This document shows positions 2,143 through 16,250 of a DNA stretch of 63,823 nucleotides, piece after piece (the stretch's first letter is position 1; each line of letters begins with the position of its first letter). Origin of the DNA: a virus; IMG/VR virus record IMGVR_UViG_3300031720_000003, positions 1 to 63,823 of that record. One strand, 5' to 3'. Made by a program: the position numbers and the translations under genes. Under the pieces are notes generated by a model. The model searched no databases. It saw only the letters and a program-made list of their open reading frames with translations, and was not told the origin of the DNA.

Positions 2143-2543
2143 CACCGCAGGCCCCATGTGGTCGGCGTCTGCCACAAGTGGAACGTGTATGGGTGCTCGT
2201 TTACGTAGTCAACTCGCTGCGGCAGCAGCATCATCACGTCGATGTCGTCGCCGAAGAACGCATCGCGTACCAGCGTCACCGTCTCCCAACTGGGAAGCCG
2301 ATTCGGATGCGACAGCGAAACGTGCAGCAGCGGACCATGCGGTGTCTGCTCGTCGCTACCGATGATCCCGAGACTGATCGGCTGGCAGCGCCAGAGCCTC
2401 TGGTATTGCATGACACCGGGAGCAACTTCAGCCCTGACCTCTCCCGGAATCCGCCTGCACACACGCCCGTCGCTGAGCCGCACATCGCCGAGAGGCAAGA
2501 TTTCGCGACGAGCCCGAGCACCCGGCGGGAGCAGAATGCCCAT
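2142..2543 (-). CDS. DUF7694-like phage protein
   Basis: 133 aa. ATG 2543 overlaps the preceding stop (TGATG), which rules out the longer 179-aa reading from 2681. The C-terminal half has the arrangement I associate with DUF7694: HVSLSHPNRLPSWE, then a charged helix, then YVNEHPYTFHLWQ. The family is common in actinobacteriophage early operons and has no established biochemistry. It is co-transcribed leftward. Confidence 0.65.
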   Translation of the reverse strand: MGILLPPGARARREILPLGDVRLSDGRVCRRIPGEVRAEVAPGVMQYQRLWRCQPISLGIIGSDEQTPHGPLLHVSLSHPNRLPSWETVTLVRDAFFGDDIDVMMLLPQRVDYVNEHPYTFHLWQTPTTWGLR

Positions 2544-3085
2544 CACGAACCGCCGTAATACGCGGTAGTCGCAGCTGCGTCGTCGCGCTCGCGGTCGAGC
2601 GCATCGGCCTCGCGTTTGTCGGCATCCAGCTCGGCGTGGTACACGCAGAGCAGTCCATCGCCGAGATAGAGCCGTCCGCACTCACGGTCGTCCTCAACGT
2701 CGGTGAGGGCTGCACAGCGCTTGGCACCCGAGGCCAGCAAGAGTTCACGCGCGGAGTCGGTGAACTCCAATCCCCGCGCGGCGGTATGGATGACCTCGGT
2801 GCGCCACTTGGTGAGGTGCGACTCGTACCCCACCAGGGCGTCGATGGCGCGTTGCACGTAGCGCTCTTCCCCGTTGAAGGCCCGCACCGTGCGCATCGCG
2901 GCCACCGCGTCGCTGTAGGCGCCGTGCAGAAACATGGCGGCGGAACCCACGTCGTTGCCCTGCCGATCCAGGGCCATCACCGCCTCGCGGTAGGCGTCTT
3001 CGAGGGCAGCGGGAACGGTCGGATGATCGAGCGAATCGGCACCCTGCACCTCGGTGCCGACTCCGGGGGCGGTAAACTGAGCCAC
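2543..3085 (-). CDS. First gene of the leftward operon, unknown function
   Basis: 180 aa. GTG 3085 is chosen because AGGAGG lies 7 bases upstream; a TTG at 3103 would place that ribosome site inside the gene. It is mostly helical, with a Cys/His-containing stretch near residues 125-160 (CAALTDVEDDRECG, then CVYHAELDADKR) that could bind a metal, and an acidic/basic coiled tail. It opens the leftward early operon, divergent from the Xre regulator. No family recognised. Confidence 0.65.
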   Translation of the reverse strand: MAQFTAPGVGTEVQGADSLDHPTVPAALEDAYREAVMALDRQGNDVGSAAMFLHGAYSDAVAAMRTVRAFNGEERYVQRAIDALVGYESHLTKWRTEVIHTAARGLEFTDSARELLLASGAKRCAALTDVEDDRECGRLYLGDGLLCVYHAELDADKREADALDRERDDAAATTAYYGGS

Positions 3086-3216
3086 TGGCTGGCCTCCTGT
3101 CAAGGCTGGCTATGAGGCTCGGGGCGGTTTACCGTTCTCGGGCCTTCTTCGTTGTTGGCACGAGCCTACCAAACGGATGTACCAGACCGCAAGCGGTCTA
3201 GAGGTGGAGAGCGCAG
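3086..3216. promoter_or_regulatory. Divergent control region between leftward and rightward early operons
   Basis: 131 bp separate the leftward AGGAGG/GTG start at 3085 from the rightward ATG at 3217. The region is AT-richer than its surroundings and contains a perfect palindrome at 3184-3199. On the plus strand TTGGCA (3155-3160) could be a -35 box, but I see no convincing -10. It is the natural place for the lysis-lysogeny switch. Confidence 0.55.
3184..3199. promoter_or_regulatory. Candidate repressor operator (16-bp palindrome)
   Basis: AGACCGCAAGCGGTCT: two perfect 7-bp arms around AA, 18 bp upstream of the Xre gene. A 15/16 match to its complement (AGACCGCTTGCGTTCT) lies at 14402-14417, over the -35 of the antisense promoter in the tail operon. 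Two such sites, both at promoters, point to a shared operator for the Xre protein. Confidence 0.55.
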
Positions 3217-3420
3217 ATGGGGCTCCGGGAGCTGCGGTTGGCGCGCCGGCTGTCGCAGCGCGACCTCGCCTACTGGGTGGGGGTGCGCGAAGCCACCCTC
3301 TCCGCCTGGGAGAACGGCAAGGCCATCCCCTACCCGCGACACCGCAAGGCGCTCGCCTACCGGCTGGGGGTCAGCGAGCAGGAGTTGGGCTTCGATGAGG
3401 GAGAGCGCGAACGCTCCTGA
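3217..3420 (+). CDS. Xre-family HTH regulator
   Basis: 67 aa, essentially one Xre/Cro helix-turn-helix: LRLARRLSQRDLAYWVGV, then EATLSAWENGK as the recognition helix, then YRLGVSEQELGF. GGTGGAG lies just upstream of the ATG. Size and position (start of the rightward operon, next to the palindrome, before the integrase) fit a repressor, Cro or integrase-control protein; I cannot tell which. Confidence 0.85.
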   Translation: MGLRELRLARRLSQRDLAYWVGVREATLSAWENGKAIPYPRHRKALAYRLGVSEQELGFDEGERERS

Positions 3421-3497
3421 GTTCAGAGCGCACCCTTCGTGGTTGACACGGTCGGTGCGTTAGCGCATCCTGACCTCCTTCGGAGGTACGGAGCGTT

Positions 3498-4634
3498 ATG
3501 CCGGGGAGGCGAGCCACCGGGGAGGGTTCCATCGTCCGCTACCGCGGGCGCTGGCGGGTCAGGGTGCGCTGGCGCGGCCGGGAGCAGACCTGGTTCCGGC
3601 CCACCCATGTCGAGGCGGCGGCCAAGCTGCGCAGCGTGCTTGAGCAGCGGGCCAAGGGCGTGAGCATCAACGGTGGGCGCCTGCCGCTCTCCCAGTGGTG
3701 CGAGGAGTGGCTGGCCCAGAGCACGCTCACTGCCCCCCGCTCGCAGGCGTTCTACGCGGCCAAGCTCGCCTACATCCTCCCCCAGCTAGGAGGCATCAGC
3801 CTCGACGAGCTGGAGCCCGCCGAGATCCGCCGCGCCCTCGCCGCGGTGGGCACACGCCACTCGCCGACCACCGTGCAGCACGTCTACCGCAGCCTCTCCA
3901 CCTGCCTCAACGCCGCGGTCAGGGAGCGACGGATCACCCGCAACCCGGCCGGTGACGTGCAAGCCCCGCAGCGCTCGGGATTCGTGGCCCAGACCCTCAC
4001 CGTGGAACAGGCCCAACGTTTGCTCGAGGTCAGCCGCGACTCGTGGATGGGGGCGCTGATCCATCTCGCCATCGCCACCGGGATGCGGCAGGGAGAACTC
4101 TTCGCGCTGACCTGGGACGACCTCGACCTCAGCGAGCGCCGTTTGAGCGTGACCAAGAGCCTCTCGCGCCAGAAGCACGCGGGCCCGACCAAGACCGCCG
4201 CCGGCCATCGCCAGCTCACCCTCGGTGCCTCGGTGGTCGCCAGCCTGCAGCACCAGCGCGCCCGGGTGGCGCAGATGCGGCTCGAGGCCCGCGACTGGAA
4301 GGACCGCAACCTCATCTTCCCCACCGTCACGGGTGGGTACCGGGCACCCTCGGGTTCCTTCTTTCGCGAGTTCCGGTCATTCCTGACCGAAGCTGAGTGC
4401 CCGCACATCCGCTTCCACGATCTGCGCCACACCGCGGGACTCTTTCTGACCCGCAGCGCGGGCTTGGTGGTGGCGTCGCGCATCCTCGGACACGCCTCAC
4501 CGACCATTACCGCGTCGTTGTACGGAGCTGCGCAACGCGATGACTTTTTGGCCGCGGCACGCTCCATGGACGAGTTGCTGATGACCCCTTCCCAGTCCCC
4601 CCCGGAGGTGCTACAGTCCCCCTCGCTCGGCTGA
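3498..4634 (+). CDS. int: Tyrosine integrase
   Basis: 378 aa. An N-terminal arm-binding region (RYRGRWRVRVRW) is followed by a SAM-like core-binding domain (about 60-150) and a catalytic domain with GMRQGELFALTWDD (box I Arg), HDLRHTAGLF (His-x-x-Arg), ILGHASPTIT (second His) and a Tyr in ASLYG. All catalytic residues are visible. It would insert phage DNA at a chromosomal attB; a tRNA-like attP core follows at once. ATG 3498 has GGAG just upstream. Function is well supported by motifs. Confidence 0.95.
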   Translation: MPGRRATGEGSIVRYRGRWRVRVRWRGREQTWFRPTHVEAAAKLRSVLEQRAKGVSINGGRLPLSQWCEEWLAQSTLTAPRSQAFYAAKLAYILPQLGGISLDELEPAEIRRALAAVGTRHSPTTVQHVYRSLSTCLNAAVRERRITRNPAGDVQAPQRSGFVAQTLTVEQAQRLLEVSRDSWMGALIHLAIATGMRQGELFALTWDDLDLSERRLSVTKSLSRQKHAGPTKTAAGHRQLTLGASVVASLQHQRARVAQMRLEARDWKDRNLIFPTVTGGYRAPSGSFFREFRSFLTEAECPHIRFHDLRHTAGLFLTRSAGLVVASRILGHASPTITASLYGAAQRDDFLAAARSMDELLMTPSQSPPEVLQSPSLG

Positions 4635-4965
4635 GGCCGGGCTCGGAACGGTCACCACAGGCCGTCGCCGAGGGACGCTGACGCAGCGCCGACCATCTGG
4701 GTGGAAGCGGAGCGGGAGACGGGGCTCGAACCCGTCGACAGCGCCGACCTCGCTCAGGAGCGGTAGCCGGAGTCTGAGCCCCCCGACGACGACCCCTCAC
4801 ACGGAGGTCGCGCGTCGTGGCAGGAGAGGCCGACCGGGCCAAGTCTGATCCCCGCCCTTCCCCCGGGCGGCAGCGCACACGACAGGCTGGCCCGTTCGAC
4901 CCTGAGCGGAGGCGTGGGTTCGCGATCAGCGTCCCGGACCCCCCTCCGTTCTCTCGGGCCGACGC
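4635..4965. other. Intergenic attachment region
   Basis: 331 bp without a convincing gene. It holds the tRNA-like attP core (4709-4739) and an inverted repeat with arms GCTCAG/CTGAGC at 4753-4778. The end of the integrase and the first bases here are rich in short inverted CTCGGC/GCCGAG elements, which may be integrase arm sites. No T-run terminator is visible. Confidence 0.5.
4709..4739 (-). other. Candidate attP core: 3' end of a tRNA-Gly
   Basis: On the minus strand this is the T-arm and acceptor 3' strand of a tRNA: a 5-bp T-stem ACGGG/CCCGT around the TTCGAGC loop, then CTCCCGCTCC. The acceptor end CTCCCGCTCC is typical of bacterial tRNA-Gly. No 5' half is present, so it is not a gene here. 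A tRNA 3' end directly downstream of a tyrosine integrase is the classic attP arrangement. Confidence 0.7.
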
Positions 4966-5169
4966 GTGACCCTCAGCACCGCCGACCTGCGGCAGCTCTT
5001 CGCACGGCTGGCTGGTGTGTGTCCGCAGTGCGGACGCTCCGTGCCACCCGCGGAGTGGTGGAGCGACTGGCTCTGCCCGGTGTGCAAAGGCACCAGCGTC
5101 GGCGAGCTGCAACGACGCTCTGAGGATCACCTGCGCCGGGCCGGCTACTACAGCGGGTGGCGCCCGTGA
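4966..5169 (+). CDS. Small zinc-ribbon protein
   Basis: 67 aa from GTG 4966. Two knuckles (CPQCGRS and CPVCKG) make a compact four-Cys zinc ribbon between flanking helices. It precedes the replication initiator by 34 bp. DNA or protein binding is likely; the exact role is unknown. Confidence 0.6.
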   Translation: MTLSTADLRQLFARLAGVCPQCGRSVPPAEWWSDWLCPVCKGTSVGELQRRSEDHLRRAGYYSGWRP

Positions 5170-5203
5170 ACGCAGCTATCGACTATTCGCTGGGGGCGAA
5201 CAG

Positions 5204-6130
5204 TTGAGTTGGGCGAGGCTCGATGACCAGATCCTCGACAACCCGAAGATTCTGCAAGCAGGGCCCATCGGATTTGCCCTGCACGTCGCAGCCATCACCT
5301 ACTGCTCGCGCAACCTGACCGACGGGTTCGTGACGTACGCAGTGGCCCGTCGACTGCTGATCACCTCATGGACCGAGGACGGCGATGACGGCAAGGTCCG
5401 CGTGCAATCGCTCGCCATGGTGTCGGGCATGTCGGGGTCAGATGGTCCAGAGGTCATCGACCACATCATCGAGTTGCTCTGCGAGGTCGGGCTGTGGGAG
5501 ATCGTCGAGCACGGCTATTTCCTGCACGACTACCTCGAATACAACCCCAGCCGGGAGATGGTGCTCGCCAAGCGCGAGGCCAGTCGCGACCGAGTGCAGG
5601 CGCACCGCCAGCGTGGCAAGGCACCTAGTAACGACGTTGGTAACGCAGCAAGTAACGGCGGCGGGAACGCCGAAGGTAACGGGGGTAGTACGCGTCCTCC
5701 CGTACCCCGTACCCGTAACCCGGTACCCGTACCAGAGTCCCGAGATAAGACCGCATCACCTAACGGTGATGCTCGTCATCTGGCTGAGGTCGGAGCGGTG
5801 TTCATGAGGGTGTGGAACGAGCACTGCGACCCTCTGCCACGGCTCCGAAAGCTCCCCCCGAGCAGAGACACGCAGCGGCTGATGCGGCAGGCACTGGAGC
5901 ACTTCGACGGCAAGGAGGTGAAGCTGGGAGAGGCGGTCGCGCGGTGTGCTCTGAACGACCACTACCGCGAACACCGCTACGGGGTCGAAGCGTTCTGCCG
6001 ACACGTCGCGAGGTGGGCAGAGCCGGGCATGCCGTACGTGGCGCCCACGAAGCCGCCTATCGAGAACCCAAAGGATCGCCAGATTCGGGAGTTCAGCGAG
6101 CGCTGGCTGGGACAGGAGGCGACGGCATGA
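5204..6130 (+). CDS. Replication initiator / replisome organiser (DnaD-like)
   Basis: 308 aa from TTG 5204 (LSWARLDDQILDNPK), where the coding character begins; the open frame extends upstream without plausible homology. The N-terminal half (about 1-130) is a helix-turn-helix domain of the phage replisome-organiser type. A repetitive linker (about 140-185, SND/GNA/SNG tetrapeptides, then PVPRTR-like) follows, and the C-terminal half (VFMRVWNEH ... HYREHRYGVEAFCRH) resembles DnaD-like helical domains. It is followed with an ATGA overlap by a probable helicase loader, as expected for an initiator/loader pair. The linker DNA itself carries iteron-like repeats. Confidence 0.7.
   Translation: MSWARLDDQILDNPKILQAGPIGFALHVAAITYCSRNLTDGFVTYAVARRLLITSWTEDGDDGKVRVQSLAMVSGMSGSDGPEVIDHIIELLCEVGLWEIVEHGYFLHDYLEYNPSREMVLAKREASRDRVQAHRQRGKAPSNDVGNAASNGGGNAEGNGGSTRPPVPRTRNPVPVPESRDKTASPNGDARHLAEVGAVFMRVWNEHCDPLPRLRKLPPSRDTQRLMRQALEHFDGKEVKLGEAVARCALNDHYREHRYGVEAFCRHVARWAEPGMPYVAPTKPPIENPKDRQIREFSERWLGQEATA
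5628..5734. repeat. Iteron-like repeats inside the initiator gene (candidate origin)
   Basis: GTAACG occurs at 5628, 5640, 5652 and 5676, with GGAACG at 5664 and GTACGC at 5688, so six sites are spaced exactly 12 bp apart. They are followed by a cluster of CCGTAC/CCCGTAACC units (5699-5734). In phage lambda the origin iterons also lie within the initiator gene O; by analogy this may be the replication origin. Confidence 0.55.
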
Positions 6131-6855
6131 ACGAGCTGCCGCAGCACGTCGCCGAGGCCTTCCTGTTCGCGCAAGCCTGCTGGCCGAAGAGCATTCCCGC
6201 CGGCACTGAAGCCACGATGGTCGCCTGGGCACCGAAGCTCGCACCGTTCGAACTCGATGAGCTGCGGTCTGCGCTGTTCACCATCGCCGAGACCGGCGAC
6301 TTTCCAACCCTCTCGGAATGGCTCGATGTGCTTGAGCAGCAGCGTCGCCACCGTGAGATCCAACAGCGTCAACAGCAGCCCAAGCTCGCCGCTCCCGCGA
6401 GTACCGTGCAGCGTCGGCTCGAGGAGTTCGACAGGTCAGCGGCGGAGAACCGCTCCCGGCAGCACGCGGAACTGGCGGCAGCGCAACGTCACGCCTACCG
6501 CATCAACGCTCCAACGCTGAGCCCGGAACAACTCGCTCTCGCGCATGCCGAGATCGACAAGGTCGGAGAGTGGGAGATGGCGGCACGCAAGGTGCTCGCT
6601 GAGGGCTACGAGCCCGGGCATGCAGCCCAGGTGTTCGTGCAGGTGGGCACCGAGCAGTTCCTTCGCGCCACCGTGCGACCGAAGCCGAAGCGTGACCCGT
6701 CCGCAGTGCTGCAGCAGACCGAGGCGCAGCGCATCGCCGCTGAGTATCACAGCGATCCCGCGAGTTGGCCGGAAGAGAACCGGGCTGCGCTGAGCCCAGG
6801 GCTGCGCAAGGCGGTGAGCGAAGAACTCGCCCGGTTGCAGACGGTGTCGTCATGA
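6127..6855 (+). CDS. Putative replicative-helicase loader (G39P-like N-terminus)
   Basis: 242 aa, ATGA overlap with the initiator. The N-terminal 65 residues (FLFAQACWPKSIPAGTEATM ... FPTLSEWLDVLEQQRR) match the helical pattern of the SPP1 G39P-type loader domain: a short helical domain counting a window of template, ending with a P-L-SEWL helix. A long Gln/Arg-rich helix and a mostly helical C-terminus follow. No Walker motifs are visible. Being directly downstream of the initiator supports loader; the assignment is inference from context and shape. Confidence 0.5.
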   Translation: MNELPQHVAEAFLFAQACWPKSIPAGTEATMVAWAPKLAPFELDELRSALFTIAETGDFPTLSEWLDVLEQQRRHREIQQRQQQPKLAAPASTVQRRLEEFDRSAAENRSRQHAELAAAQRHAYRINAPTLSPEQLALAHAEIDKVGEWEMAARKVLAEGYEPGHAAQVFVQVGTEQFLRATVRPKPKRDPSAVLQQTEAQRIAAEYHSDPASWPEENRAALSPGLRKAVSEELARLQTVSS

Positions 6856-7139
6856 ACTGGCTGCGCCGCAAGGGCGACGATCGGATGCGCGTCACCATGC
6901 AGTGCCATGTGTGTGGCAGCCGCCTAGAAGGTGCGCTCTTCGCGACGCCCGCTGAGCTGAACGAGTGGTCGAACAGTTGGGGGCTGCTGCACCAGCGCAT
7001 GCATGAGGGTGCCGACGATGGGATGGCGTGGGTCGAGACACCACCACGACGCGTCGGTCATGCAGCCATGGAAGCACTCGCCAGACAAGACACGAATCAA
7101 TTCACCAAACCATCGGGAGCCAAGGCAACAACAGCATGA
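6852..7139 (+). CDS. Small zinc-finger-like protein
   Basis: 95 aa, ATGA overlap with the loader. CHVCGSRLEG near the start and HQRMHEG about 30 residues later make a C2H2-like set, followed by a Pro/Arg- and Thr-rich tail. Role unknown; it belongs to the replication operon. Confidence 0.6.
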   Translation: MNWLRRKGDDRMRVTMQCHVCGSRLEGALFATPAELNEWSNSWGLLHQRMHEGADDGMAWVETPPRRVGHAAMEALARQDTNQFTKPSGAKATTA

Positions 7140-7738
7140 ACAGCGAAGCCACCGCCGAGCCTGTAGCCATAGTGGATCTGGCTGATGAACTCGGGACGCG
7201 GAAGCAAACGCTTTTCAAGATCGCGCGCCGCCTTGGCCTTGACACCACGAGGCGTCGGGAGTTTGGGCGCGGCAATCAACTGATCACTGTCGTTAGCGCT
7301 GCTGGAGCACAGGCACTCCGGGCGGAGTACGCGAATGCCCGACAGCGAGGTGAACCCTCCATAGCGGGCATGCCTCTCATACCAGATGAAGGGAGCTTCT
7401 ATGTGATCCAACTAGAGCCGCAACTTGATCCCGGTCGGTTCAAGCTCGGGTTCACCGCAGATTTGGATGGTCGCCTCCGGCATCACCGCTGCTCAGCGCC
7501 CTTCGCCATTTACCGTCGAACATGGCCATGCCGTCGGTCGTGGGAACGAACCGCGATTGATTGTTTGGCCGCTGGCCTTGAGCGCATACATACCGAGGTC
7601 TTCAGGACTGACGCACTCGGACAGCTTGTAGCGCGTGGCGATCAGTTCTTCGGGCTGATGCCTGAACTCGGAGGCGCAGTTGGCCAGGATGACAAGGTAG
7701 CAAGCCTCAAGCGACTGATCCTGACCGAATTGGCATGA
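7136..7738 (+). CDS. HTH plus GIY-YIG-like (T5orf172/MUG113-type) protein
   Basis: 200 aa, ATGA overlap. The N-terminal 60 residues look like a small HTH (VDLADELGTRKQTLFKIARR). Residues about 85-180 fit the GIY-YIG fold of the T5orf172/MUG113 group: FYVIQLEP in place of GIY, FKLGFTADLDGRL in place of YIG with its Arg helix, then LERIHTEVF. Such proteins are nucleases or DNA-binding proteins in phages. Catalysis here is uncertain because the first Tyr pair is altered. Confidence 0.6.
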   Translation: MNSEATAEPVAIVDLADELGTRKQTLFKIARRLGLDTTRRREFGRGNQLITVVSAAGAQALRAEYANARQRGEPSIAGMPLIPDEGSFYVIQLEPQLDPGRFKLGFTADLDGRLRHHRCSAPFAIYRRTWPCRRSWERTAIDCLAAGLERIHTEVFRTDALGQLVARGDQFFGLMPELGGAVGQDDKVASLKRLILTELA

Positions 7739-7755
7739 ACAACGGAGGAACACCG

Positions 7756-8016
7756 ATGACGACCAAGCGAATGAGCGCAGTGGCAGAACCCGAGACGGAG
7801 GGTGAGCCGAAAGAATCACCCCTGCTCGATGAACCCCGCTACCGGGTGATCATCGATCTCGGGGTGGCCACATCGGAAGCAGCGGCCGAGCAGTTGCTCA
7901 GCCACTTCTCGGGCATGCGCTTCTGGCACGGCGATGACAACAACGGCGAAGCAAAGCTCGGTGCGGGTGAGTTCGTGCTGCGCCGTGAGCAGCTGAGTGT
8001 GGAGCGCGCTGGGTGA
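7756..8016 (+). CDS. Conserved small protein, unknown
   Basis: 86 aa from ATG 7756, which has GGAGG 7 bases upstream; ATG 7735 would give 7 extra residues and an ATGA overlap. The centre (YRVIIDLGVATSEAAAEQLL, then SHFSGMRFW) reads as one beta-alpha-beta unit. No family recognised. Confidence 0.6.
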   Translation: MTTKRMSAVAEPETEGEPKESPLLDEPRYRVIIDLGVATSEAAAEQLLSHFSGMRFWHGDDNNGEAKLGAGEFVLRREQLSVERAG

Positions 8017-8180
8017 GCGTCGCGGAGACGCTGCAAGAACTCGCACATGTTGAGCTAGAGATTGAGCGCGTGCGTGATGCCGCCGAACGCGTGGAGACCG
8101 AGGCATCGCTACTTTTGCGGATGATCGACGGCGAGCGGGCGCGACTACTGGTGAGCAGCGCGGAGGAACCTGCCGCGTGA
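8013..8180 (+). CDS. 55-aa coiled-coil micro-protein
   Basis: GTG 8013 overlaps the previous stop (GTGA), and its TGA overlaps the start of the RusA-like gene (GTGA). It is almost entirely one charged amphipathic helix (LELEIERVRDAAERVETEA). The exact double overlap is the main evidence that it is a gene. Function unknown. Confidence 0.6.
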   Translation: MSVAETLQELAHVELEIERVRDAAERVETEASLLLRMIDGERARLLVSSAEEPAA

Positions 8181-8593
8181 GCGACCTCGCCAAGGTGCTG
8201 CCGTTGCAGCGCTCCTACGAGATCACCGTGCCGCTCAGTGAGTTGCCGCCCAGCATGAACGCTCGGCTGCACTTCCGGCGCCGCGCGTCGAAGGTGGCCA
8301 ATGCCCGCGCCATCACGGCGCTGTATGCGCGCGAAGCCCGGCAGAAAGCGCGGGTGCATCAACCGTTCCAGCGTGCGGACGTGGCGGTGACGGTGACCTG
8401 GCCCAGTTCGCGCAAGGGCCCGTTGCCGGACGCCGATAACACGGCATCCAGTGTCAAGCCGCTGCTCGATAGTTTGGTGGGGATCTGGCTCGTCGACGAT
8501 TCCCCGAAGTGCATCCGCACCATCTCATGGACATCGACCAAGCACGGGGATCGCCTGGAGGTGGTGTTCACCATCACTCCGGTGTCGAGCTGA
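8177..8593 (+). CDS. RusA-like Holliday-junction resolvase
   Basis: 138 aa. RusA-type features: LPPSMNARLHFR at the N-terminus, LPDADNTASSVKPLLDSL carrying the catalytic Asp pair, then WLVDDSPK with the third acidic site. It would cleave branched DNA made during phage replication and recombination. GTGA and TGATG overlaps tie it to both neighbours. Confidence 0.8.
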   Translation: MSDLAKVLPLQRSYEITVPLSELPPSMNARLHFRRRASKVANARAITALYAREARQKARVHQPFQRADVAVTVTWPSSRKGPLPDADNTASSVKPLLDSLVGIWLVDDSPKCIRTISWTSTKHGDRLEVVFTITPVSS

Positions 8594-8820
8594 TGGCGCA
8601 GTGCTACGTGTGCGGCAAGGAGATGGTGCGGGGCAGCCACGGAAGCATCGACGTGGACGAGCACGGCATCCCCCAGCCACGGCACCCGCACTGCCATCCC
8701 GGTACCGTGCTGCCCCGGGCGTCACCGTGGGAGCGCGACCTGCGCCGGATCATCCGTGAAGAGATGCGCGCAGCACTTGCCGAACTAACACTGGACGATC
8801 CAACAGGAGGGCCCGTATGA
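8593..8820 (+). CDS. Small zinc-binding protein
   Basis: 75 aa, TGATG overlap with the resolvase. CYVCGKEM, then a His cluster (PRHPHCHPG) gives a plausible zinc site; the C-terminus is an amphipathic helix. The last bases carry an AGGAGG that serves the next reading frame. Function unknown. Confidence 0.55.
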   Translation: MAQCYVCGKEMVRGSHGSIDVDEHGIPQPRHPHCHPGTVLPRASPWERDLRRIIREEMRAALAELTLDDPTGGPV

Positions 8821-8947
8821 GGTGACCCGATTCTTTCGGCGCCGACCCGACAACGACATCGACGACATCATCGACGACTTCTTTGACTGCGACGAGTGCC
8901 GTCGCTTTCACCGTAAGCATCATCACAAGCCTCAGAGGAGGATCACC

Positions 8948-9271
8948 GTGGCAGTAGCCCTCACCGACCAGCAGCAGGTGCAGCTCTCCGTCAGCGCGCT
9001 CGACGCCGATGGTCAGCCGGATCCCAACGCGACGATCACCTGGGCCGAGGATTCCAACGGCAGCATCATCACCCTGGACAACACCACGGGTGACACCGTG
9101 AATGCCATCGCGGTCACCGGGGCGAACGGCAGCGCCAACGTCACCGCGACGGCGAGCGACAGCGACGGGAATAGCGTGACCTCGCCGCCACTGCAGATCG
9201 CGGTAACCACCAGCACGGACGCTGTTCAGGTGTCGATCTCGGCCGGCACGCCGACGCCGAAGAACCCCTAA
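8948..9271 (+). CDS. Ig-like (Big-type) domain protein, two possible starts
   Basis: 107 aa from GTG 8948, behind AGAGGAGG. The same frame is open from GTG 8822, which would add 42 residues that are very acidic, then His-rich (CDECRRFHRKHHH). The main part is a single bacterial Ig-like domain (QVQLSVSALDADGQPDP, ITWAED, then GANGSANVTATASD). Such domains usually decorate virions or bind carbohydrates, so its place in the early rightward operon is odd. A terminator follows. Confidence 0.6.
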   Translation: MAVALTDQQQVQLSVSALDADGQPDPNATITWAEDSNGSIITLDNTTGDTVNAIAVTGANGSANVTATASDSDGNSVTSPPLQIAVTTSTDAVQVSISAGTPTPKNP

Positions 9272-9296
9272 CGCGCAACGCAGCGGTCAACCTCCC

Positions 9297-9327
9297 GGGC
9301 CGGGGTGGGCAACCGCCCCGGCCTTTT
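9297..9327 (+). terminator. Rho-independent terminator
   Basis: Stem GGCCGGGG (9298-9305) with CCCCGGCC (9316-9323), a 10-base loop and then TTTT. It sits 26 bp after the Ig-like gene and ends the main rightward operon. Confidence 0.85.
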
Positions 9328-9471
9328 CTATTCGCCCCTCCGCCAGCGGCGGAAGGGCGAGAGGCGCGGCTTGCCGTGCTTGCAGGCCCGGCAGAACAGG
9401 GCGAGGCTCCACAGGGGCAGGGGACGCCCACAGGCAGCGCAGGGGCGTGGTTTGATCTCCCCCTCCTTCAC
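9328..9471 (-). CDS. 47-aa zinc-ribbon micro-protein
   Basis: GTG 9471. CAACGRPLPLW and CRACKHGK form a four-Cys ribbon, with a very basic C-terminus (FRRWRRGE). It overlaps nothing and ends at the terminator. The start has only a weak ribosome site, so the gene is tentative. Confidence 0.4.
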   Translation of the reverse strand: MKEGEIKPRPCAACGRPLPLWSLALFCRACKHGKPRLSPFRRWRRGE

Positions 9472-9488
9472 AGCAGCCACAGGGCCTC

Positions 9489-9656
9489 TTAGGGGATGTG
9501 CGGACGGGGCGCGCCGAGCAGGAAGCTGGCGAAGCCCGTGGCGAGGCCCAGATCGACCAGGAAGGTCTGTAGCTGCCCGGTTGTGACCGCCACCAGCGAG
9601 AGGATGGCGGCAAGGGCGAAGCAGACCACCGCGACCAGGAGCAAGAGGAAGCTCAT
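9489..9656 (-). CDS. 55-aa two-helix membrane micro-protein
   Basis: ATG 9656. Begins MSFLLLLVAVVCFALAAILS (helix 1), with a second hydrophobic segment at about 33-50. Its start codon shares the tetramer CATG with the start of the plus gene at 9655, giving back-to-back starts. No clear ribosome site; kept because the hydrophobic pattern is strong. Confidence 0.45.
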   Translation of the reverse strand: MSFLLLLVAVVCFALAAILSLVAVTTGQLQTFLVDLGLATGFASFLLGAPRPHIP

Positions 9657-10212
9657 GGAGGGTCAGGATACCACCTCTGAACAGACGTTCCCGGCGAAAC
9701 CCCCAGCGTTCTATGATGCGGAGCGCATGCTGGCGGCGCAGGACGTGGAGCCGGACACCGAGCAGTCCGACCCGTGGCTGGAGCAGGCCCACCGTGACGC
9801 CGTGGCCCAGGTCTCAGCGTGGCTGCGCCGGCCCTCGGGCAGCCTTGAAGTGCTCTCTTTGACGAGCTGGGACAGCAACAGCAGCGGGACGCGCGAACCC
9901 AGCTCGGCCTTCAATGTGGTCATTCGGGAATTAGATCTCGAAGCCGCCATCGACCGCCTGCCACAGCTGGAGCAGGTTTGCTGTCTGGTCAGTAAGGCCA
10001 TCGACCGGGAGACCAAGGGCTGGTTTCGCACCCAGGTCATCCCCGCCATGGAGCGCCTCTGCGGGATGGAATGGATCGAGTGGACGTACTGGGTGGAGTC
10101 GCACCCCGAGCGTGACCATGAGGGACGCGAGAACAACAAGCCCTTCGAGCGGCTGCTCTCCCGAGCTGCGGAGCACATCGTCGACGACCTCGGCGACAGC
10201 TTCTTCCGCTAG
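9655..10212 (+). CDS. Unknown protein at the end of the rightward region
   Basis: 185 aa from ATG 9655 (AAGAGGAAG upstream); ATG 9727 is an alternative. An acidic, disordered N-terminus is followed by a helical core (IDRLPQLEQVCCLVSKAIDR, then MERLCGMEWIEWTYW) that recalls small regulatory helices, but I recognise no family. It lies beyond the 9297 terminator, so it needs its own promoter or read-through, and it runs convergent to the late operon. Confidence 0.6.
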   Translation: MEGQDTTSEQTFPAKPPAFYDAERMLAAQDVEPDTEQSDPWLEQAHRDAVAQVSAWLRRPSGSLEVLSLTSWDSNSSGTREPSSAFNVVIRELDLEAAIDRLPQLEQVCCLVSKAIDRETKGWFRTQVIPAMERLCGMEWIEWTYWVESHPERDHEGRENNKPFERLLSRAAEHIVDDLGDSFFR

Positions 10213-10216
10213 ACGC

Positions 10217-10253
10217 AAAAAGAAGCCCCCGAACCCTGTGAAGGGCCGGGGGC
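10217..10253 (-). terminator. Terminator of the leftward late operon
   Basis: On the minus strand, stem GCCCCCG (10253-10247) with CGGGGGC (10231-10225), then TTCTTTTT. It lies 25 bp after the last late gene and also faces the convergent plus gene, so both may use it. Confidence 0.8.
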
Positions 10254-10277
10254 AATGCGAAGAAGGGGTTCGGGGGG

Positions 10278-10607
10278 TTAGCGGCCAGACACACTCACAG
10301 AGCATGTGCCCGGTGCCGGTGGCTCAATGCCGTACTGCGCGGCAAAGGCACCGACCACACGACAGGTGTAGTTTGCCTCAGCCAGGTAGCTCTGGATGAA
10401 TCTCGCGCTGGCTTGAGCTTGCTCCGCCTGAATCTGTTGTAGCTGTTGGTTCTGCGCAATCAGTGCGTTGACGCGCTCGCTGTTGAAGCGCACGTTGACC
10501 ACGGTGAACACCAGTCCAATGAGCAGGAGCAACTGAAAGAAGTAGATCAGCCCGAACGTATAGCGGTGTTCGAAGAAGAACTCGAAGGGCGTCTCGCGCT
10601 GGGGCAT
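10278..10607 (-). CDS. Single-pass membrane protein with coiled coil (possible lysis accessory)
   Basis: 109 aa from ATG 10607, 4 bp after the upstream stop, with AGGAGG somewhat distant. One transmembrane helix (FGLIYFFQLLLLIGLVF), then a Gln/Ala coiled coil and a C-terminal domain with two Cys (NYTCRVV, PGTCSV). Topology resembles holin accessories or spanin-like proteins, but it is far from the holin/lysin pair; a virion or host-membrane role is equally possible. Confidence 0.6.
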   Translation of the reverse strand: MPQRETPFEFFFEHRYTFGLIYFFQLLLLIGLVFTVVNVRFNSERVNALIAQNQQLQQIQAEQAQASARFIQSYLAEANYTCRVVGAFAAQYGIEPPAPGTCSVSVSGR

Positions 10608-10611
10608 TTGC

Positions 10612-11010
10612 TCATCGGCCTCCTGGGAGGGTGGGCGCAACGGTGGGGGCGGACTGGTAGATGATCGTGGGAGCAGCGGGGCCGAGCACATGCAGCGCCA
10701 CGATGACGCCCACGATGGCCGCGATGGCTTGCAACAGGGCAAAGATGGTGCCCCCGATGGTCAGCCACCGACGCAGGCGTCTGCGCTCCTCTTTTTCACG
10801 CTTAGCTTGCTCAAGCTCTTCCTGATCGCGCTGCATCCCTCGCCGCACCAAGCGGGGAAAGCTGTTGCGCTCAAGGACGCTCAGCTCGTCGATATGGGTC
10901 TCGCTGAGGATCTTGATCCAGTCGCGGATCCGGCCCAAGGAGCCGTTGGGGGTGTGGCCCAACGGCGAGCGCAGAGCATCAGCATCCTCCTCTTCAGGTG
11001 GCACGCGCAC
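10612..11010 (-). CDS. Membrane protein with charged helix, unknown
   Basis: 132 aa from GTG 11010, behind AGAGGAGG. A soluble N-terminal half leads into a strongly charged helix (EELEQAKREKEERRRL) and then one long membrane segment (TIGGTIFALLQAIAAIVGVI). Paired with the next membrane gene at the 3' end of the late operon. A lysis or superinfection role is inference. Confidence 0.65.
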   Translation of the reverse strand: MRVPPEEEDADALRSPLGHTPNGSLGRIRDWIKILSETHIDELSVLERNSFPRLVRRGMQRDQEELEQAKREKEERRRLRRWLTIGGTIFALLQAIAAIVGVIVALHVLGPAAPTIIYQSAPTVAPTLPGGR

Positions 11011-11102
11011 AGTCCTCCTCTCAGGTCGTAACAGTGTGGTCAGTGACGTGCGCGGCTTAGGTGATCAGATCGAAGTTTGGGCAGAGATCCCAAGATCCCG
11101 AG

Positions 11103-11963
11103 CTATTCGTCCCGCTCGAACCAACTCCCGACAGTTATAGAGCCAGAGCCGTTCGTGTTAGGAGCCATCGCGTACACCCCGCCGGGGTCGCAATCGCTTA
11201 CGGCTTGGAAGTTGAGCGTGGTCGCTCCTGCGCCACTTCCCCACGAATTCACGCCTACCACGCCCCAGCGCACAAGATCCCCAGCGATGGTGCTCCATGG
11301 CTCAATCGTTGCTGCGTCGAAGTGGGCACTGACGAAGGCTGCGAACGTGAGCTTCGTGGAGCGTCGATTCGCGTCGTTCAAGTACGCCTGATAGATGCTG
11401 AGTCCAGTGATTAGGGTGCCGGTACCACCCGTGCAGCCCGTGAAGGTGGTGCTTGTGACCCCCGTGTATTGCACCGATGTCCAGCCCAATTGAGTGAGCA
11501 CCACTAGGTAGCCAGAACTGTCGAAGGCGGCTGTTGAAGCCACGTTAATCGTTGCAGTAGGCAGCGCCACGTTATTGCTGCCCGACGCCGTCGTCGTTCT
11601 GGCCGCTTTGCGCGACGCCTTCATGTCCCCACCCGAGGTATAGGGCTGCTGGCTGTCGTGCGTTCGGGGCTCGATCAAGGGCGACCAGTATGTAACGTTT
11701 GGGGTTTGTCCGTCGTTGGTGTCCACAAAGAGGATGTAGTAGGTGGACTGGTCGGGGGTCTCCCAGGTGGCGGAAACCGTGATGTTGCCGTAAGTGTTCG
11801 TCACCGCCGCCACATTGGTGATGCCGAAGTCTGGGCTTCCCGCTGGTGTGACATCCCCCTGTGCCGGTGGACTGCCGAACCGACTGGTTAGCCATGCACT
11901 CGTCTGCACCGTGCTCGACGGTGTATACGAAAACGGGTTCTGCCAGGCCAGGGTGTAGCTCAC
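11103..11963 (-). CDS. Virion/tail-fibre-like protein
   Basis: 286 aa from GTG 11963. Low Lys, high Thr/Ser/Gly, beta-rich sequence. An N-terminal region with WETPDQSTYYILFVD suggests an Ig or FN3-like fold, and the middle has repeated TATINVAST / TQLGWTSVQYTG strands typical of phage fibre domains. It lies at the distal end of the tail operon after the collar protein. Exact role unknown. Confidence 0.6.
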   Translation of the reverse strand: MSYTLAWQNPFSYTPSSTVQTSAWLTSRFGSPPAQGDVTPAGSPDFGITNVAAVTNTYGNITVSATWETPDQSTYYILFVDTNDGQTPNVTYWSPLIEPRTHDSQQPYTSGGDMKASRKAARTTTASGSNNVALPTATINVASTAAFDSSGYLVVLTQLGWTSVQYTGVTSTTFTGCTGGTGTLITGLSIYQAYLNDANRRSTKLTFAAFVSAHFDAATIEPWSTIAGDLVRWGVVGVNSWGSGAGATTLNFQAVSDCDPGGVYAMAPNTNGSGSITVGSWFERDE

Positions 11964-11967
11964 GGGG

Positions 11968-12195
11968 CTAGTTGTGCCCCACGGGTTGCAGTGACGGGAC
12001 GACTGTCAGCTCAAGGTTCGGTGGGCTGAGTAGGAATTCGCGCTGCTCACCGTCCTGGAACTCCAGCGTGACCGTGGGCGGATGGGAAGCGTCGGCGTGG
12101 TAGTGGATCAGTGCGAAGGCGACGCCAACGAGCGGCATGTCCCCGTCCAACACACGCAAGGTGCCATCGTCGCGGCACTCCAAACGCAGTCGCAT
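11968..12195 (-). CDS. Small beta-rich protein
   Basis: 75 aa from ATG 12195 (GGGAGG upstream), shorter than the 87-aa open frame. Alternating strands (MRLRLECRDDGTLRVLDGD ... PTVTLEFQDGE) suggest a small beta-barrel. It sits between the collar and fibre-like genes and is probably a minor virion or assembly protein. Confidence 0.6.
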   Translation of the reverse strand: MRLRLECRDDGTLRVLDGDMPLVGVAFALIHYHADASHPPTVTLEFQDGEQREFLLSPPNLELTVVPSLQPVGHN

Positions 12196-12209
12196 TATTT
12201 GCAGCCTCC

Positions 12210-13055
12210 CTATGCGCTTTTGATGTACCAAGCCACGCCGCGAGCCGGGTTGAGAACTGAGAAGGCAGAGCCCGAGCCCGCACTTCCTGTACTGGACGCA
12301 CTAGAGGCGCTGCTGTCAGTGGTAGGGGTAGTCGAGGCAGTAATCGTGCTGGTGCCATTCAGCGCGAACCCGCTGCCGCCTGTCGTGAACACGGCGCCGC
12401 CTGCGTTGTCGAGAACGAAATGGCTGCTGCCACCGCTCGCCGTTCCGTGGGTGTGACCACCGTGGTTGTGGCTGTGCGTGTGCGTCATGCTGTGCGTGTG
12501 GCTCGGCATGTTGCTGGTGCTGATAGTCGCCGTCGTCGCTCCGGTTGTTGCACCCAGCGCCACCGTGCTGCCCGCACCCATGGGAAACACGTTGCGCATA
12601 TCTGGCACAGTCGTGGAGTTGCCCAGATACGCGTACAGCGCCGGGTTGGTGGTCGCCAGGGAGGGATAGTTGGTGCCGTCGCAGAGGATGAACACGGGCG
12701 AGCTGAAGCTCTTTGGGAACAGCAGGATGGCGCCGATGGGCACTCCTGAACCGCCCGCGCCCGCCGATCCGGCGGCTGGCCCCATCACCATGCGCGAGGT
12801 GCGCCCACTGCCCTGACCGCGGGCGATCAGCACCGCGTCCCCGACGGCCGGGTAGTAGTAGCTCATGTACGGCAAGCCCGGAGTGATGCTCGCCCCCGCG
12901 CCAGTTGCGGAGTTGTCGAGGTACACGTCCACGGTGTAGTTGCCGGTCATGTCCACCGCCGCGATGGTGCCGGTCTGCCACCCCGAGTCCTGATCCCACG
13001 ATGGCTTCAGCGCCGTGGCCAGACTGCGCGCGATCGCAGTCGGGCTCAGTGCCAC
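12210..13055 (-). CDS. Tail collar-domain protein with His-rich trimer tip
   Basis: 281 aa from GTG 13055. An N-terminal OB-like segment (about 20-95) recalls baseplate hub proteins. It is followed by a phage tail collar domain (PIGAILLFPK ... FILCDGTNYPSL ... TTVPDMRNVFPMG). After this comes a metal-binding-type stretch, MPSHTHSMTHTHSHNHGG, seen in trimeric fibre tips where His-x-His motifs bind iron, then Gly/Ser-rich loops and a closing NPARGVAWYIK. Likely host-contacting fibre or collar. Confidence 0.8.
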   Translation of the reverse strand: MALSPTAIARSLATALKPSWDQDSGWQTGTIAAVDMTGNYTVDVYLDNSATGAGASITPGLPYMSYYYPAVGDAVLIARGQGSGRTSRMVMGPAAGSAGAGGSGVPIGAILLFPKSFSSPVFILCDGTNYPSLATTNPALYAYLGNSTTVPDMRNVFPMGAGSTVALGATTGATTATISTSNMPSHTHSMTHTHSHNHGGHTHGTASGGSSHFVLDNAGGAVFTTGGSGFALNGTSTITASTTPTTDSSASSASSTGSAGSGSAFSVLNPARGVAWYIKSA

Positions 13056-13057
13056 GC

Positions 13058-14302
13058 TCAGGCCCCCGGGGCGATCACGCGCCCGCTGAGCACTGTCTGG
13101 GTCGCGTATTCGACGCTGTAGTGGATGGTGTCGGTGATGGTCTTCTGCATGTTCAAACCCAGTCGTGGTTCGGTGGCGGTGAACACGTCATCAATGTCGA
13201 AGAGGGGGTTGTTGGGCGCGCTCACCGACAAGGTGTATGCAGAGGACAGCGACACGCCGAGGTTGAACTGCGCCTCCGACAATGCCTGTGCCGACGACGT
13301 GATCAGGCTGTCCATGATGAAGTTGGGCGCCCGCCCGATCCCCCCGCCCACAAACGTCGGTGAGGCGGAGTTGTTGTCGGCGGCTTCGGCCTGGATCGGG
13401 GTGTTGGTGCCGGTCAGGTTCTGCGCCCCGGTCGCGGCCACGAAGATGTCGTTCTTGACCCCGTCGCGGGTCATCGCCAAGGTCACCGCTGCGGGAGTGG
13501 TGAACGGTGTGCCCCCGATGGGATGCACGTAGGTGCCTTGCGCGGTCACCTCACCGGGATAGAAGTTCCACACCGGAGCCAGTGAGGAGAGTGATCCGCC
13601 CGCGGCTGAACCCGGAATGGGTTTGCCAGTGAGCACGCCGTTGACATCGAAGAAGAGCTGCTGACCGCCTGACTGGGCCATGTCCAAGCACGCCTGCCAG
13701 GGATCCTGTCCCTGGTTGTACGTGCCCGCCGGCACCACGTACGACGAGCCGCCCTGAAAGTTGGGATTGGTGATCCAGGGTGGCACGGGAATGCCCACCG
13801 AGCCCGGCCCGTTGTTGTTCCAGATGTAGCTCAACAAGGCCACGACCTCATCCTCGAGCACCCCACCCGCTGCGGGAACCGTGTAGTTCTGCAGCAGTTG
13901 CCACTGCGAGAAGGGCCAGCTGCGGTCGAACAACTGCAGCGTGCAGGTGAGGTTGTTGCCCGTTGAGGCGGTCGTGGTCGTTGCAATCGCGTACACACCC
14001 AGAGGTGCCCAGCCGTTGGCTCCGATCTGTCCCGTCTGGATGTCCGGGGCCAGCACGGTCATGGCCACCGACACCTCCGTACCGAAGGGGGCAAGGGGCG
14101 AGGTGGGATCCAGCGGCAAATACGGCACCTGCTGTCCCGACCACAACACCGTCTGCGGTGGGATGGAAGGGACGATCTCGACGGTCAGCTCGCCCTGCCG
14201 GCGCTGTGCGCTGTTGCGATCGACGGTGAAGTCAGCCTCAGAGACAGGCAGGTAGATGCTGGTGCTCTGTCCGCTGTTCATGACGTTCAACTGGCACGCC
14301 AT
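13058..14302 (-). CDS. Minor tail protein (DUF5047-like)
   Basis: 414 aa from ATG 14302. Begins with ACQLNVMNSG and SEADFTVDRNSAQRR, then LTVEIVPS, a start I associate with DUF5047-type siphovirus minor tail proteins, and ends two bases before the collar gene. Probably part of the distal tail. Its upstream neighbour is on the other strand, so the 10278-14302 block may need its own promoter; TTTATAGA near 14330 (minus) is a possible -10. Confidence 0.65.
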   Translation of the reverse strand: MACQLNVMNSGQSTSIYLPVSEADFTVDRNSAQRRQGELTVEIVPSIPPQTVLWSGQQVPYLPLDPTSPLAPFGTEVSVAMTVLAPDIQTGQIGANGWAPLGVYAIATTTTASTGNNLTCTLQLFDRSWPFSQWQLLQNYTVPAAGGVLEDEVVALLSYIWNNNGPGSVGIPVPPWITNPNFQGGSSYVVPAGTYNQGQDPWQACLDMAQSGGQQLFFDVNGVLTGKPIPGSAAGGSLSSLAPVWNFYPGEVTAQGTYVHPIGGTPFTTPAAVTLAMTRDGVKNDIFVAATGAQNLTGTNTPIQAEAADNNSASPTFVGGGIGRAPNFIMDSLITSSAQALSEAQFNLGVSLSSAYTLSVSAPNNPLFDIDDVFTATEPRLGLNMQKTITDTIHYSVEYATQTVLSGRVIAPGA

Positions 14303-14401
14303 GATCGCGCTGCCCCAGCGCAGCGCGTCTATAAATCCCGAGGCTGCCGACCAGATGGCGCAAATCCCTCCCGTTCGAGAGCGCTATCGGTCGCAATGTG
14401 T

Positions 14402-14437
14402 AGACCGCTTGCGTTCTGTTGTCCCGCTCTCTACAAT
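14402..14437 (+). promoter_or_regulatory. Promoter with overlapping operator
   Basis: TTGCGT (14409-14414), 17 bp, TACAAT (14432-14437). The palindrome-like AGACCGCTTGCGTTCT (14402-14417) covers the -35 and differs at one base from the complement of the operator at 3184-3199. Transcription would start near 14444 and be blocked when the operator is occupied. Confidence 0.65.
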
Positions 14438-14440
14438 GCG

Positions 14441-14473
14441 AAGCCCCTGGAGCGGTTGGGCTCCGAGGGGCTT
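14441..14473 (+). promoter_or_regulatory. 5' leader hairpin
   Basis: AAGCCCCT-GGAGC pairs with GCTCC-g-AGGGGCTT: 13 base pairs with one bulged G and a 6-base loop, right at the expected transcript start. No T-run follows, so it is not a terminator. It could protect the transcript or be bound by a protein. Confidence 0.6.
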
Positions 14474-14504
14474 CTAACCACCAACCTGTGTGGAGGTCAA
14501 TGGC

Positions 14505-15152
14505 GTGGCTATTAATGGTACGGCGACTGCTGTCAGGCCAACAGAAGAGCGCACTTTCGTGGAAGCAGCCCTCACGCTGGAGCCGCTACAGATCAGTTCC
14601 GTGGACATTCGCGTCGAGGGGCTGTCCCCGCTGAGCACACATCGCTGGTCGGAGAAGGCCAAACGGATGATGCTCGAGGCGCAGAGCGGCAAGGCACGCA
14701 AGCGCAAGGAGCCGAAGGATCCCGACGCGGACTACAACGACGCGCGCTACCGAATTGACGCTAAGCGCGACGGCATCCCCGCGATCTGTTTCAAGGCCGC
14801 GATCGTCGGCGCGGCTCGTCACTTCGAAGGCATCCCCATGACCGTTCTCAAGACCGCAATCTTCGTTGAGGGCATCGGCAAGGAGCAACTCATCCCAATC
14901 GAGGGCAAGCCCGAGAAGTGGGAGGCGACGGTGCGCATCGCCATGGGCACTGCCGACCTGCGCTATCGTCCACTGTACTGGCCATGGTCTGCGGTGCTGC
15001 CGGTGCGCTTCGTGGCGTCGACCATCTCGCTTGACGCTGTCTACGCTTTGGTCGATGCTGCCGGCTTGGGTGGCGTCGGTGAGTGGCGTCCCAGCGCACC
15101 AAAGTCGCTCACAGGCTCCTACGGTCGATTCAAGGTTTCAGTGGAGGCTTAG
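14505..15152 (+). CDS. Conserved phage protein of unknown function, gene 1 of the pentamer-array locus
   Basis: 215 aa from GTG 14505, with GGAGG 8 bases upstream; GTG 14490 would bury that site. Mixed alpha/beta with a Lys-rich middle (SEKAKRMMLEAQSGKARKRK), then GIPAICFKAAIVGAAR, IPIEGKPEKWEA, MGTADLRYRPLYW and GSYGRFKV near the end. I recall proteins of this general pattern paired with the next gene in other phages, but know no function. It is on the plus strand inside the minus-strand tail operon. Confidence 0.75.
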   Translation: MAINGTATAVRPTEERTFVEAALTLEPLQISSVDIRVEGLSPLSTHRWSEKAKRMMLEAQSGKARKRKEPKDPDADYNDARYRIDAKRDGIPAICFKAAIVGAARHFEGIPMTVLKTAIFVEGIGKEQLIPIEGKPEKWEATVRIAMGTADLRYRPLYWPWSAVLPVRFVASTISLDAVYALVDAAGLGGVGEWRPSAPKSLTGSYGRFKVSVEA

Positions 15153-15154
15153 CC

Positions 15155-15616
15155 ATGGCACTCGCCACCGCTCCGACGCTGGTTTACGAAGGACTGCCCG
15201 ACGCTGCGCTACGCGAGTTGGAGCAGCTCCATGAGCAGGATGGGGCGCTTCGACCTGAACGTGTTATCGAAGTCGCGGCTGATGCCGATAGCCCTCTGCA
15301 CAGCTACTTCGAGTGGGATGACACCGAGGCGGCTCGGCAGCACCGCATCGCACAGGCACGTCAGGTGATCCGGTCGGTCAAGGTCTATGTCAGCGATCGC
15401 CCTGCTGTGCAAGTGCGTGCCTACGTGTCCATGGGCGTTGAGCACGGACGGGCGTATCAGCGCACCAGCCAGGTCGTGAACAATGAGTTCACTCTGAACG
15501 AACTGCGGCGATCACTCGGTCGTGATCTCCAGCGGATCCAGCGGAAGCTACAGCTCATTGATGAATTCGCCGAAGCCGCAGCGGGACTCAACGGCGTTAT
15601 TGCCATGTTGTCCTAG
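15155..15616 (+). CDS. Conserved phage protein of unknown function, gene 2 of the pentamer-array locus
   Basis: 153 aa from ATG 15155, 2 bp after the previous stop, with GTGGAGG upstream. Key stretch SPLHSYFEWDDTEAARQHR, then QARQVIRSVKVYV, VRAYVSMG, and a C-terminal basic helix pair (LRRSLGRDLQRIQRKLQL). Predominantly helical and basic enough at the C-terminus to bind nucleic acid (inference). It ends 65 bp before the phased pentamer repeats. Confidence 0.75.
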   Translation: MALATAPTLVYEGLPDAALRELEQLHEQDGALRPERVIEVAADADSPLHSYFEWDDTEAARQHRIAQARQVIRSVKVYVSDRPAVQVRAYVSMGVEHGRAYQRTSQVVNNEFTLNELRRSLGRDLQRIQRKLQLIDEFAEAAAGLNGVIAMLS

Positions 15617-15681
15617 GGGCAGCAATGGCGCGCACAGGCGAGCACTGAAGGGGACAGCCCTGCGGTGGAATGGTCAGTCTT

Positions 15682-16015
15682 GGAACGGCACGGCAGCATT
15701 GGAATGGCAGTAACGGCTAGCTTGGCCCGGCACCGCACTGCAGCGCACCACTGCGCAACGACACGGAATGGCAGTAATGGCGTGGCGAGCAAGGCACCGG
15801 ATTGGCAGCATGGCAGCGGTGCGTCCTGCGTGGGTCGGTCAAGCAAGGCATGGCAGGGCACAGGTACGCATGGGATTGCAGTGGCAGTGGTGGATAGCCA
15901 CGCGAGGGACGGCAATGTTAAGCAAGGCATTGGCAGCAGTGGACAGGCGAGCCCTGGGCTGCCGGGCACAGGCAGGCTACGGTATGCAGCGCGACGGCAC
16001 GGTTTGGAATGGCAG
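15682..16015. repeat. Degenerate pentanucleotide-phased array
   Basis: Low-complexity DNA with strict 5-bp phasing and consensus G-(G/C)-N-N-N, often GGCAN. In block 15793-15887, 17 of 19 consecutive pentamers start with G. In block 15906-16015, 19 of 22 start with G and all 22 have G or C second. Earlier blocks (15730-15789, 15701-15720, 15682-15696) keep the pattern, with small insertions resetting the phase. Several frames are open across it, but 5-bp phasing argues against a conserved protein. Confidence 0.75.
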
Positions 16016-16094
16016 TAGAGGCTGGCGTCGGAGTGCGACGCACTGGCGGGCGTTGGACAGGCTCGCAATGTAGCGCAGAGGCAGGCTAACCGTG

Positions 16095-16242: not shown

Positions 16243-16250
16243 GCTGTGCC

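What the first reader, a model, noticed from the sequence alone, without database searches (positions are those of the whole stretch)
3184..14417. One palindromic operator at two distant promoters
AGACCGCAAGCGGTCT at 3184-3199 (in front of the Xre gene) and AGACCGCTTGCGTTCT at 14402-14417 (over the -35 of the pentamer-array promoter): the second differs from the complement of the first at one base. This ties the array locus to the lysogeny regulator, so it may be switched on only when repression lifts.
Basis: partly seen in the sequence, partly recalled or inferred. Interest (0 to 1): 0.75.

Follow-up and report, generated by a model that had tools for sequence, protein, structure and literature searches.

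The report
Repressor operator repeated at VIPR promoter
In a temperate phage, the DNA mark at its lysogeny-control promoter is copied onto the promoter of a distant inserted cassette that encodes a VIPR-type RNA-guided anti-phage system, so the phage's own regulator probably keeps that system off until repression lifts.

Summary
A perfect 7-2-7 palindrome lies 17 bp before xre, and a one-mismatch copy lies at 14402-14417. No other site in the 63.8-kb phage matches within two mismatches.

The pair alone is not decisive: three of the 49 perfect palindromes have such a copy. The promoter geometry is stronger evidence. In both places the operator supplies the -35 (TTGCGG/TTGCGT) in the same register, followed by a TANNNT -10. 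Only 7 of 1,401 TTGs in the genome have that.

The "pentamer array" locus is an inserted cassette. A sister phage has its flanking tail genes adjacent. Its first gene folds like Cas7/Csm3, and relatives carry GGC-NN arrays. It matches VIPR, an RNA-guided inter-phage system (PMC13142463).

In other phages this gene tends to sit directly behind the repressor/Cro switch: four of four annotated lineages, and 12 of 24 records with an HTH_3 gene versus 1.6 expected. Here the cassette lies 11 kb away but carries its own operator copy.

Best reading: Xre represses both the leftward early promoter and the VIPR promoter. Binding, and whether Xre acts as CI or Cro, are unproven.

The parts
3184..3199 (.). 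Operator O1, AGACCGC-AA-GCGGTCT, perfect 7-2-7 palindrome 17 bp upstream of xre
3187..3192 (-). -35 (TTGCGG) of the predicted leftward promoter P_L, lying inside O1
3163..3168 (-). -10 (TAGGCT, 18-bp spacer) of predicted P_L
3217..3420 (+). xre, 67-aa HTH_3/HTH_31 regulator; the only HTH_3 hit in the genome
3498..4634 (+). tyrosine integrase, same strand as xre
2543..3085 (-). first gene of the leftward unit under predicted P_L; family unknown
14402..14417 (.). Operator O2, AGACCGC-TT-GCGTTCT, one arm mismatch to O1
14409..14414 (+). -35 (TTGCGT) of predicted P_VIPR, inside O2, same register as at P_L
14432..14437 (+). -10 (TACAAT, 17-bp spacer) of predicted P_VIPR
14378..14393 (.). possible weak second operator (AGAGCGCTATCGGTCG, 11 of 14 arm bases) 24 bp upstream of O2; fourth-best site in the genome; tentative
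14440..14474 (+). stable hairpin at the predicted 5' end of the P_VIPR transcript
   Evidence: z -2.8
14505..15152 (+). vipr-like gene (phrog_4652); Cas7/Csm3-like fold
15155..15616 (+). second gene of the cassette (phrog_15946), vap-like position
15617..16092 (+). 5-nt-periodic array (imperfect GGC-NN type), presumed vrRNA region
16094..16128 (+). 15-bp-stem hairpin between the array and the convergent tail gene, terminator-like without a U tract
   Evidence: z -4.1
14303..16250 (.). inserted cassette between two tail genes that are adjacent in the sister phage

Best explanation
The two 16-mers are operators of one dimeric Xre repressor. At 3184-3199 Xre covers the -35 of the leftward early promoter P_L and the start region of its own gene. 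At 14402-14417 it covers the -35 of P_VIPR, the promoter of an inserted VIPR cassette (vipr, vap, vrRNA array). When Xre is bound, RNA polymerase cannot use either promoter; when repression lifts (infection of a non-lysogen, or induction) the early genes and the VIPR system come on together. Shown: sequences, copy number, promoter register, insertion of the cassette, and the usual place of such genes behind a repressor switch. Inferred: binding, repression, and the lysogenic role of Xre.
For: Only two sites in the genome within 2 mismatches, and 17 of 18 identical in promoter orientation. Both form the -35 of the only promoter-like motifs nearby; 7 of 1,401 TTGs genome-wide have such a -10. 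A local test found no equally good shared palindrome in 150 random regions. Xre is the only HTH_3 gene and is next to the integrase. The cassette is a separate transcription unit inserted between tail genes that are adjacent in a sister phage. The sister lacks xre, the vipr-like gene and the operator together. The vipr-like gene lies in the early operon just behind the repressor in Mycobacterium, two Gordonia and a cyanobacterial phage lineage. In metagenomic records 12 of 24 have a divergent HTH pair within 3 kb upstream, against 1.6 expected and at most 8 in 5,000 random placements.
Against: No binding data. Three of 49 palindromes in this genome have near-copies by chance. No close relative carrying the same Xre was found, so the operator pair cannot be tested for conservation. 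Four other phages with an HTH gene away from vipr showed no shared palindrome. Xre is only 67 aa and co-oriented with int and the replication genes, so its role is open. TTGCGG/TTGCGT and TAGGCT are weak consensus matches; the standard promoter scan listed neither.
Confidence: 0.62

Rival explanations
1. Same operators and same Xre, but Xre is a Cro-like early repressor that shuts P_L and P_VIPR down later in lytic growth; another, unrecognised protein keeps the prophage silent.
For: Xre is Cro-sized (67 aa, HTH only). In many relatives the small HTH gene on the same strand as vipr is the Cro-like partner of a divergent repressor.
Against: No second HTH_3 gene in the genome. xre is followed by the integrase on the same strand, as expected of a lysogeny module.
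Confidence: 0.2
2. The palindrome is a site for a different protein (host regulator or an unrecognised phage protein) that controls both promoters; Xre is not involved.
For: The gene upstream of O1 on the other strand (2543-3085) has no family; host regulators were not examined.
Against: O1 lies 17 bp before xre, the usual place of an autoregulatory operator. The sites are absent from the sister phage that lacks xre.
Confidence: 0.12
3. Chance: two similar GC-rich words at unrelated places.
For: About 180 16-mer pairs with at most 1 mismatch occur in shuffled sequence of this size; 3 of 49 palindromes have near-copies.
Against: Both copies are intergenic, in the same orientation, and both complete a rare -35/-10 arrangement; about 2.5e-5 by chance once TTG is given.
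Confidence: 0.06

Closest known systems
Dispersed prophage-repressor operators (own knowledge: phage P1 C1 operators spread over the genome; mycobacteriophage L5-type repressor sites, see abstracts of PMC9283540 and PMC1934351)
   Same: One repressor site near the regulator is repeated at a distant promoter, extending the immunity regulon to an unlinked gene set.
   Different: Only two symmetric sites here, both over -35 elements; the L5-type sites are asymmetric and numerous (PMC9283540, PMC1934351). The distant target is a VIPR cassette.
VIPR systems (PMC13142463)
   Same: RAMP/Cas7-like protein, second small gene, adjacent intergenic array of 5-nt units, phage-borne.
   Different: The array of the window is imperfect compared with the YNNGG repeats described and with those of its own relatives. 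A word search of the main text found no mention of operators, and promoters only in another context; control of VIPR by the phage's repressor is the new element.
Lambda-type divergent repressor/Cro switch
   Same: Small HTH gene, divergent transcription, operator overlapping promoters, integrase close by.
   Different: One operator at the switch instead of three; regulator without a cleavable C-terminal domain; second operator 11 kb away.

Membership tests
Phage repressor regulon with a distant operator | dyad operator at the regulator's own promoter | tested here: met
   perfect 7-2-7 palindrome 17 bp before xre
Phage repressor regulon with a distant operator | same operator at a second promoter and not scattered at random | tested here: met
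   two sites only within 2 mismatches, both over a -35
Phage repressor regulon with a distant operator | the regulator binds both sites and represses | not testable with these tools
   needs gel shift, footprint or reporter
Phage repressor regulon with a distant operator | pairing conserved in close relatives | tested here: inconclusive
   no relative with the same Xre found; four distant cases negative
L5-type stoperators | many asymmetric sites spread through the genome | tested here: not met
   two symmetric sites only
VIPR system | RAMP-fold Vipr protein | tested here: met
   AF2 pLDDT 83; Csm3/Cas7 chains best, Z about 10, about 150 residues
VIPR system | accessory gene beside vipr | tested here: met
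   phrog_15946 gene follows here and in phage Saal; its vap type was not determined
VIPR system | array of GGY/NN pentamers | tested here: inconclusive
   clear arrays in nearly all relatives. In the window it has the strongest 5-nt period of the genome, but only 4 tandem YNNGG pairs, against a mean of 0.94 and a maximum of 6 in other stretches
VIPR system | vrRNA expression and DNA targeting | not testable with these tools
   needs small-RNA sequencing and targeting assay

The most novel reading that the evidence does not exclude
VIPR systems are generally part of the immunity regulon of temperate phages: usually placed directly behind the repressor/Cro switch, and, when transplanted elsewhere as here, kept there by acquiring a copy of the resident repressor's operator, so that this anti-competitor weapon is fired only on lytic entry.
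Probability: 0.45. Interest if true: 0.75.

Novelty: new variant of a known kind. Interest (0 to 1): 0.6.

Why it matters
VIPR was described in 2026 as an RNA-guided weapon between phages; when a temperate phage deploys it is not addressed in the text searched. This locus gives a direct, testable answer: the resident repressor's operator sits on the VIPR promoter, and in other phages the gene sits behind the repressor switch. It also means that a phage changing its repressor specificity must change the VIPR promoter too, and that a superinfecting phage with the same immunity would have its VIPR kept silent.

Tried and rejected
1. Relatives of Xre in viral and genome collections: only short or weak matches, so the operator could not be followed across relatives.
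2. Divergent gene 2543-3085 and integrase: no relatives in viral contigs. Portal in genome contigs: none.
3. Operator in 46 loci with the vipr-like gene: absent, as expected for unrelated repressors. In four records related by terminase, matches are at the level of the reversed-pattern control.
4. Displaced vipr genes in four other phages tested for a palindrome shared with their HTH gene: none convincing.
5. Cassette-end inverted repeat as an alternative meaning of O2: rejected, because there is no further copy at the other end of the insert and O2 lies 100 bp inside it.
6. A plain YNNGG count did not single out the window's array (other stretches reach 6 tandem pairs); Fourier power at period 5 did.
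7. Strict sigma-70 scan found nothing in either region; the relaxed TTGNNN/TANNNT search was used instead.

Full report
Observation. The window is a complete virus record of 63,823 bases. AGACCGCAAGCGGTCT at 3184-3199 and AGACCGCTTGCGTTCT at 14402-14417 are present as described. The second differs from the reverse complement of the first at one base. No further site with at most two mismatches exists in the record. In promoter orientation the shared block is 18 bp with 17 identities.

Is it chance? A specific copy with at most one mismatch in the 14 arm bases is expected 0.02 times per genome. But the genome holds 49 perfect 7-arm palindromes and three of them have such a copy, and shuffled sequence gives about 180 overlapping 16-mer pairs. 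So the match alone would not convince. The promoter geometry does more. At 14409 the operator contains TTGCGT, followed after 17 bp by TACAAT. On the minus strand at 3192 it contains TTGCGG, followed after 18 bp by TAGGCT. TTGNNN-N16-18-TANNNT occurs seven times on both strands of the whole genome, and only 0.5% of the 1,401 TTGs have it. That both operator copies have it by chance is about 2.5e-5 (my product of the two frequencies). A standard strict promoter scan lists neither site. A position-weight scan also ranks 14378-14393, 24 bp from O2, fourth in the genome; it may be a weak second site, but this is tentative.

Surroundings of the first site. xre (3217-3420) encodes a 67-aa HTH_3/HTH_31 protein, the only HTH_3 match in the genome. 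It is followed on the same strand by a tyrosine integrase, a replication initiator and a RusA-like resolvase. Leftward runs a unit beginning with an unassigned gene (2543-3085). So O1 lies in a divergent region and covers the -35 of the predicted leftward promoter as well as the region just before xre.

Surroundings of the second site. In a sister phage (terminase 62% identical) the homologues of tail genes 16251-18758 and 13058-14302 are separated by about 60 bp. In the window 1.95 kb lie between them, on the opposite strand: promoter with O2, a 5' hairpin, two genes, a 5-nt-periodic region and a closing hairpin. The sister lacks the vipr-like gene, Xre and the operator. The locus is thus an inserted, self-contained transcription unit, and the operator lies inside the insert.

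What the second locus is. The first gene (phrog_4652) has 42 aligned members. Its predicted structure (pLDDT 83, pTM 0.75) matches Cas7/Csm3 backbone proteins of type III and VII CRISPR complexes best (Foldseek E about 5e-5; Z about 10 over about 150 residues). Pentamer-periodic arrays flank the gene in nearly all relatives and are very regular in mycobacteriophages Saal and Brocalys, Gordonia phages Ecliptus and UmaThurman and cyanophage Cy-LDV1. This is the anatomy of VIPR systems: a RAMP protein, an accessory gene and vrRNAs of alternating GGY/NN units that repress other phages (PMC13142463). The window's own array is imperfect. It has the strongest 5-nt period of the genome but few tandem YNNGG units, and other stretches reach more.

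Comparative test of the regulatory link. In Mycobacterium phages Saal and Brocalys the vipr-like gene pair lies in the rightward early operon after the immunity repressor and antirepressor. In Gordonia phage Ecliptus it is the second gene behind a divergent HTH pair that is itself inserted in the tail module. In Gordonia phage UmaThurman it is the third gene behind the immunity repressor. In cyanophage Cy-LDV1 it is in the operon facing cI. Among 24 metagenomic viral records with both a vipr-like gene and an HTH_3 gene, 12 have a divergent HTH pair within 3 kb upstream; random placement gives 1.6 on average and at most 8 in 5,000 trials. Records from the same sample may be related, so the effective number is smaller. 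The gene family therefore normally belongs to the repressor-controlled early region. In the window the cassette is 11 kb from the switch, and a copy of the switch's operator lies over its promoter.

Mechanism proposed. Xre dimers bind O1 and O2. At both sites they occlude the -35, keeping P_L and P_VIPR silent in a lysogen; O1 also allows xre to regulate itself. On infection of a non-immune cell, or on induction, both promoters open, so the early genes and the VIPR complex are made together, at the moment when competing phages or prophages matter. Binding and repression are inferred, not shown. Xre has no cleavable C-terminal domain, so induction by RecA-type self-cleavage is not expected. A Cro-like role is a real alternative.

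Novelty. Scattered phage operators are known (phage P1 and L5-type phages; own knowledge and the abstracts found). VIPR is known since 2026. Control of a VIPR cassette by the resident lysogeny regulator, through a copied operator, was not found in the VIPR paper's main text (word search); its supplement was not readable here. I rate it a new variant of a known kind.

Noticed in passing
14505-16092: VIPR-like cassette: Cas7/Csm3-fold protein, second small gene and an imperfect 5-nt-periodic array. The array is less regular than in relatives, so it may be a divergent or decaying type.
   Followed up: partly
1-257 and 63625-63817: The same 24-bp coding repeat runs at both ends of the record, so the contig is probably circular or permuted and was broken inside the repeat.
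   Followed up: no
4705-4760: Stretch after the integrase that reads on the minus strand like a tRNA T-arm/3' end (GGTTCGAGCCCC); a likely attP in a tRNA gene. No full tRNA found.
   Followed up: no
56481-56509: Another rare TTG-N17-TACAAT promoter-like motif on the minus strand, in the gap before gene 54710-56281; it lacks the operator.
   Followed up: no
59889-60761: DUF5131 protein with a very strong match, next to a DNA methyltransferase gene, in the leftward unit.
   Followed up: no
L147 (Gordonia phage Ecliptus) 4741-7592: A divergent HTH pair with the vipr-like gene and array sits between the tail assembly chaperone and tape measure genes: a whole switch plus VIPR inserted in the structural module.
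   Followed up: no
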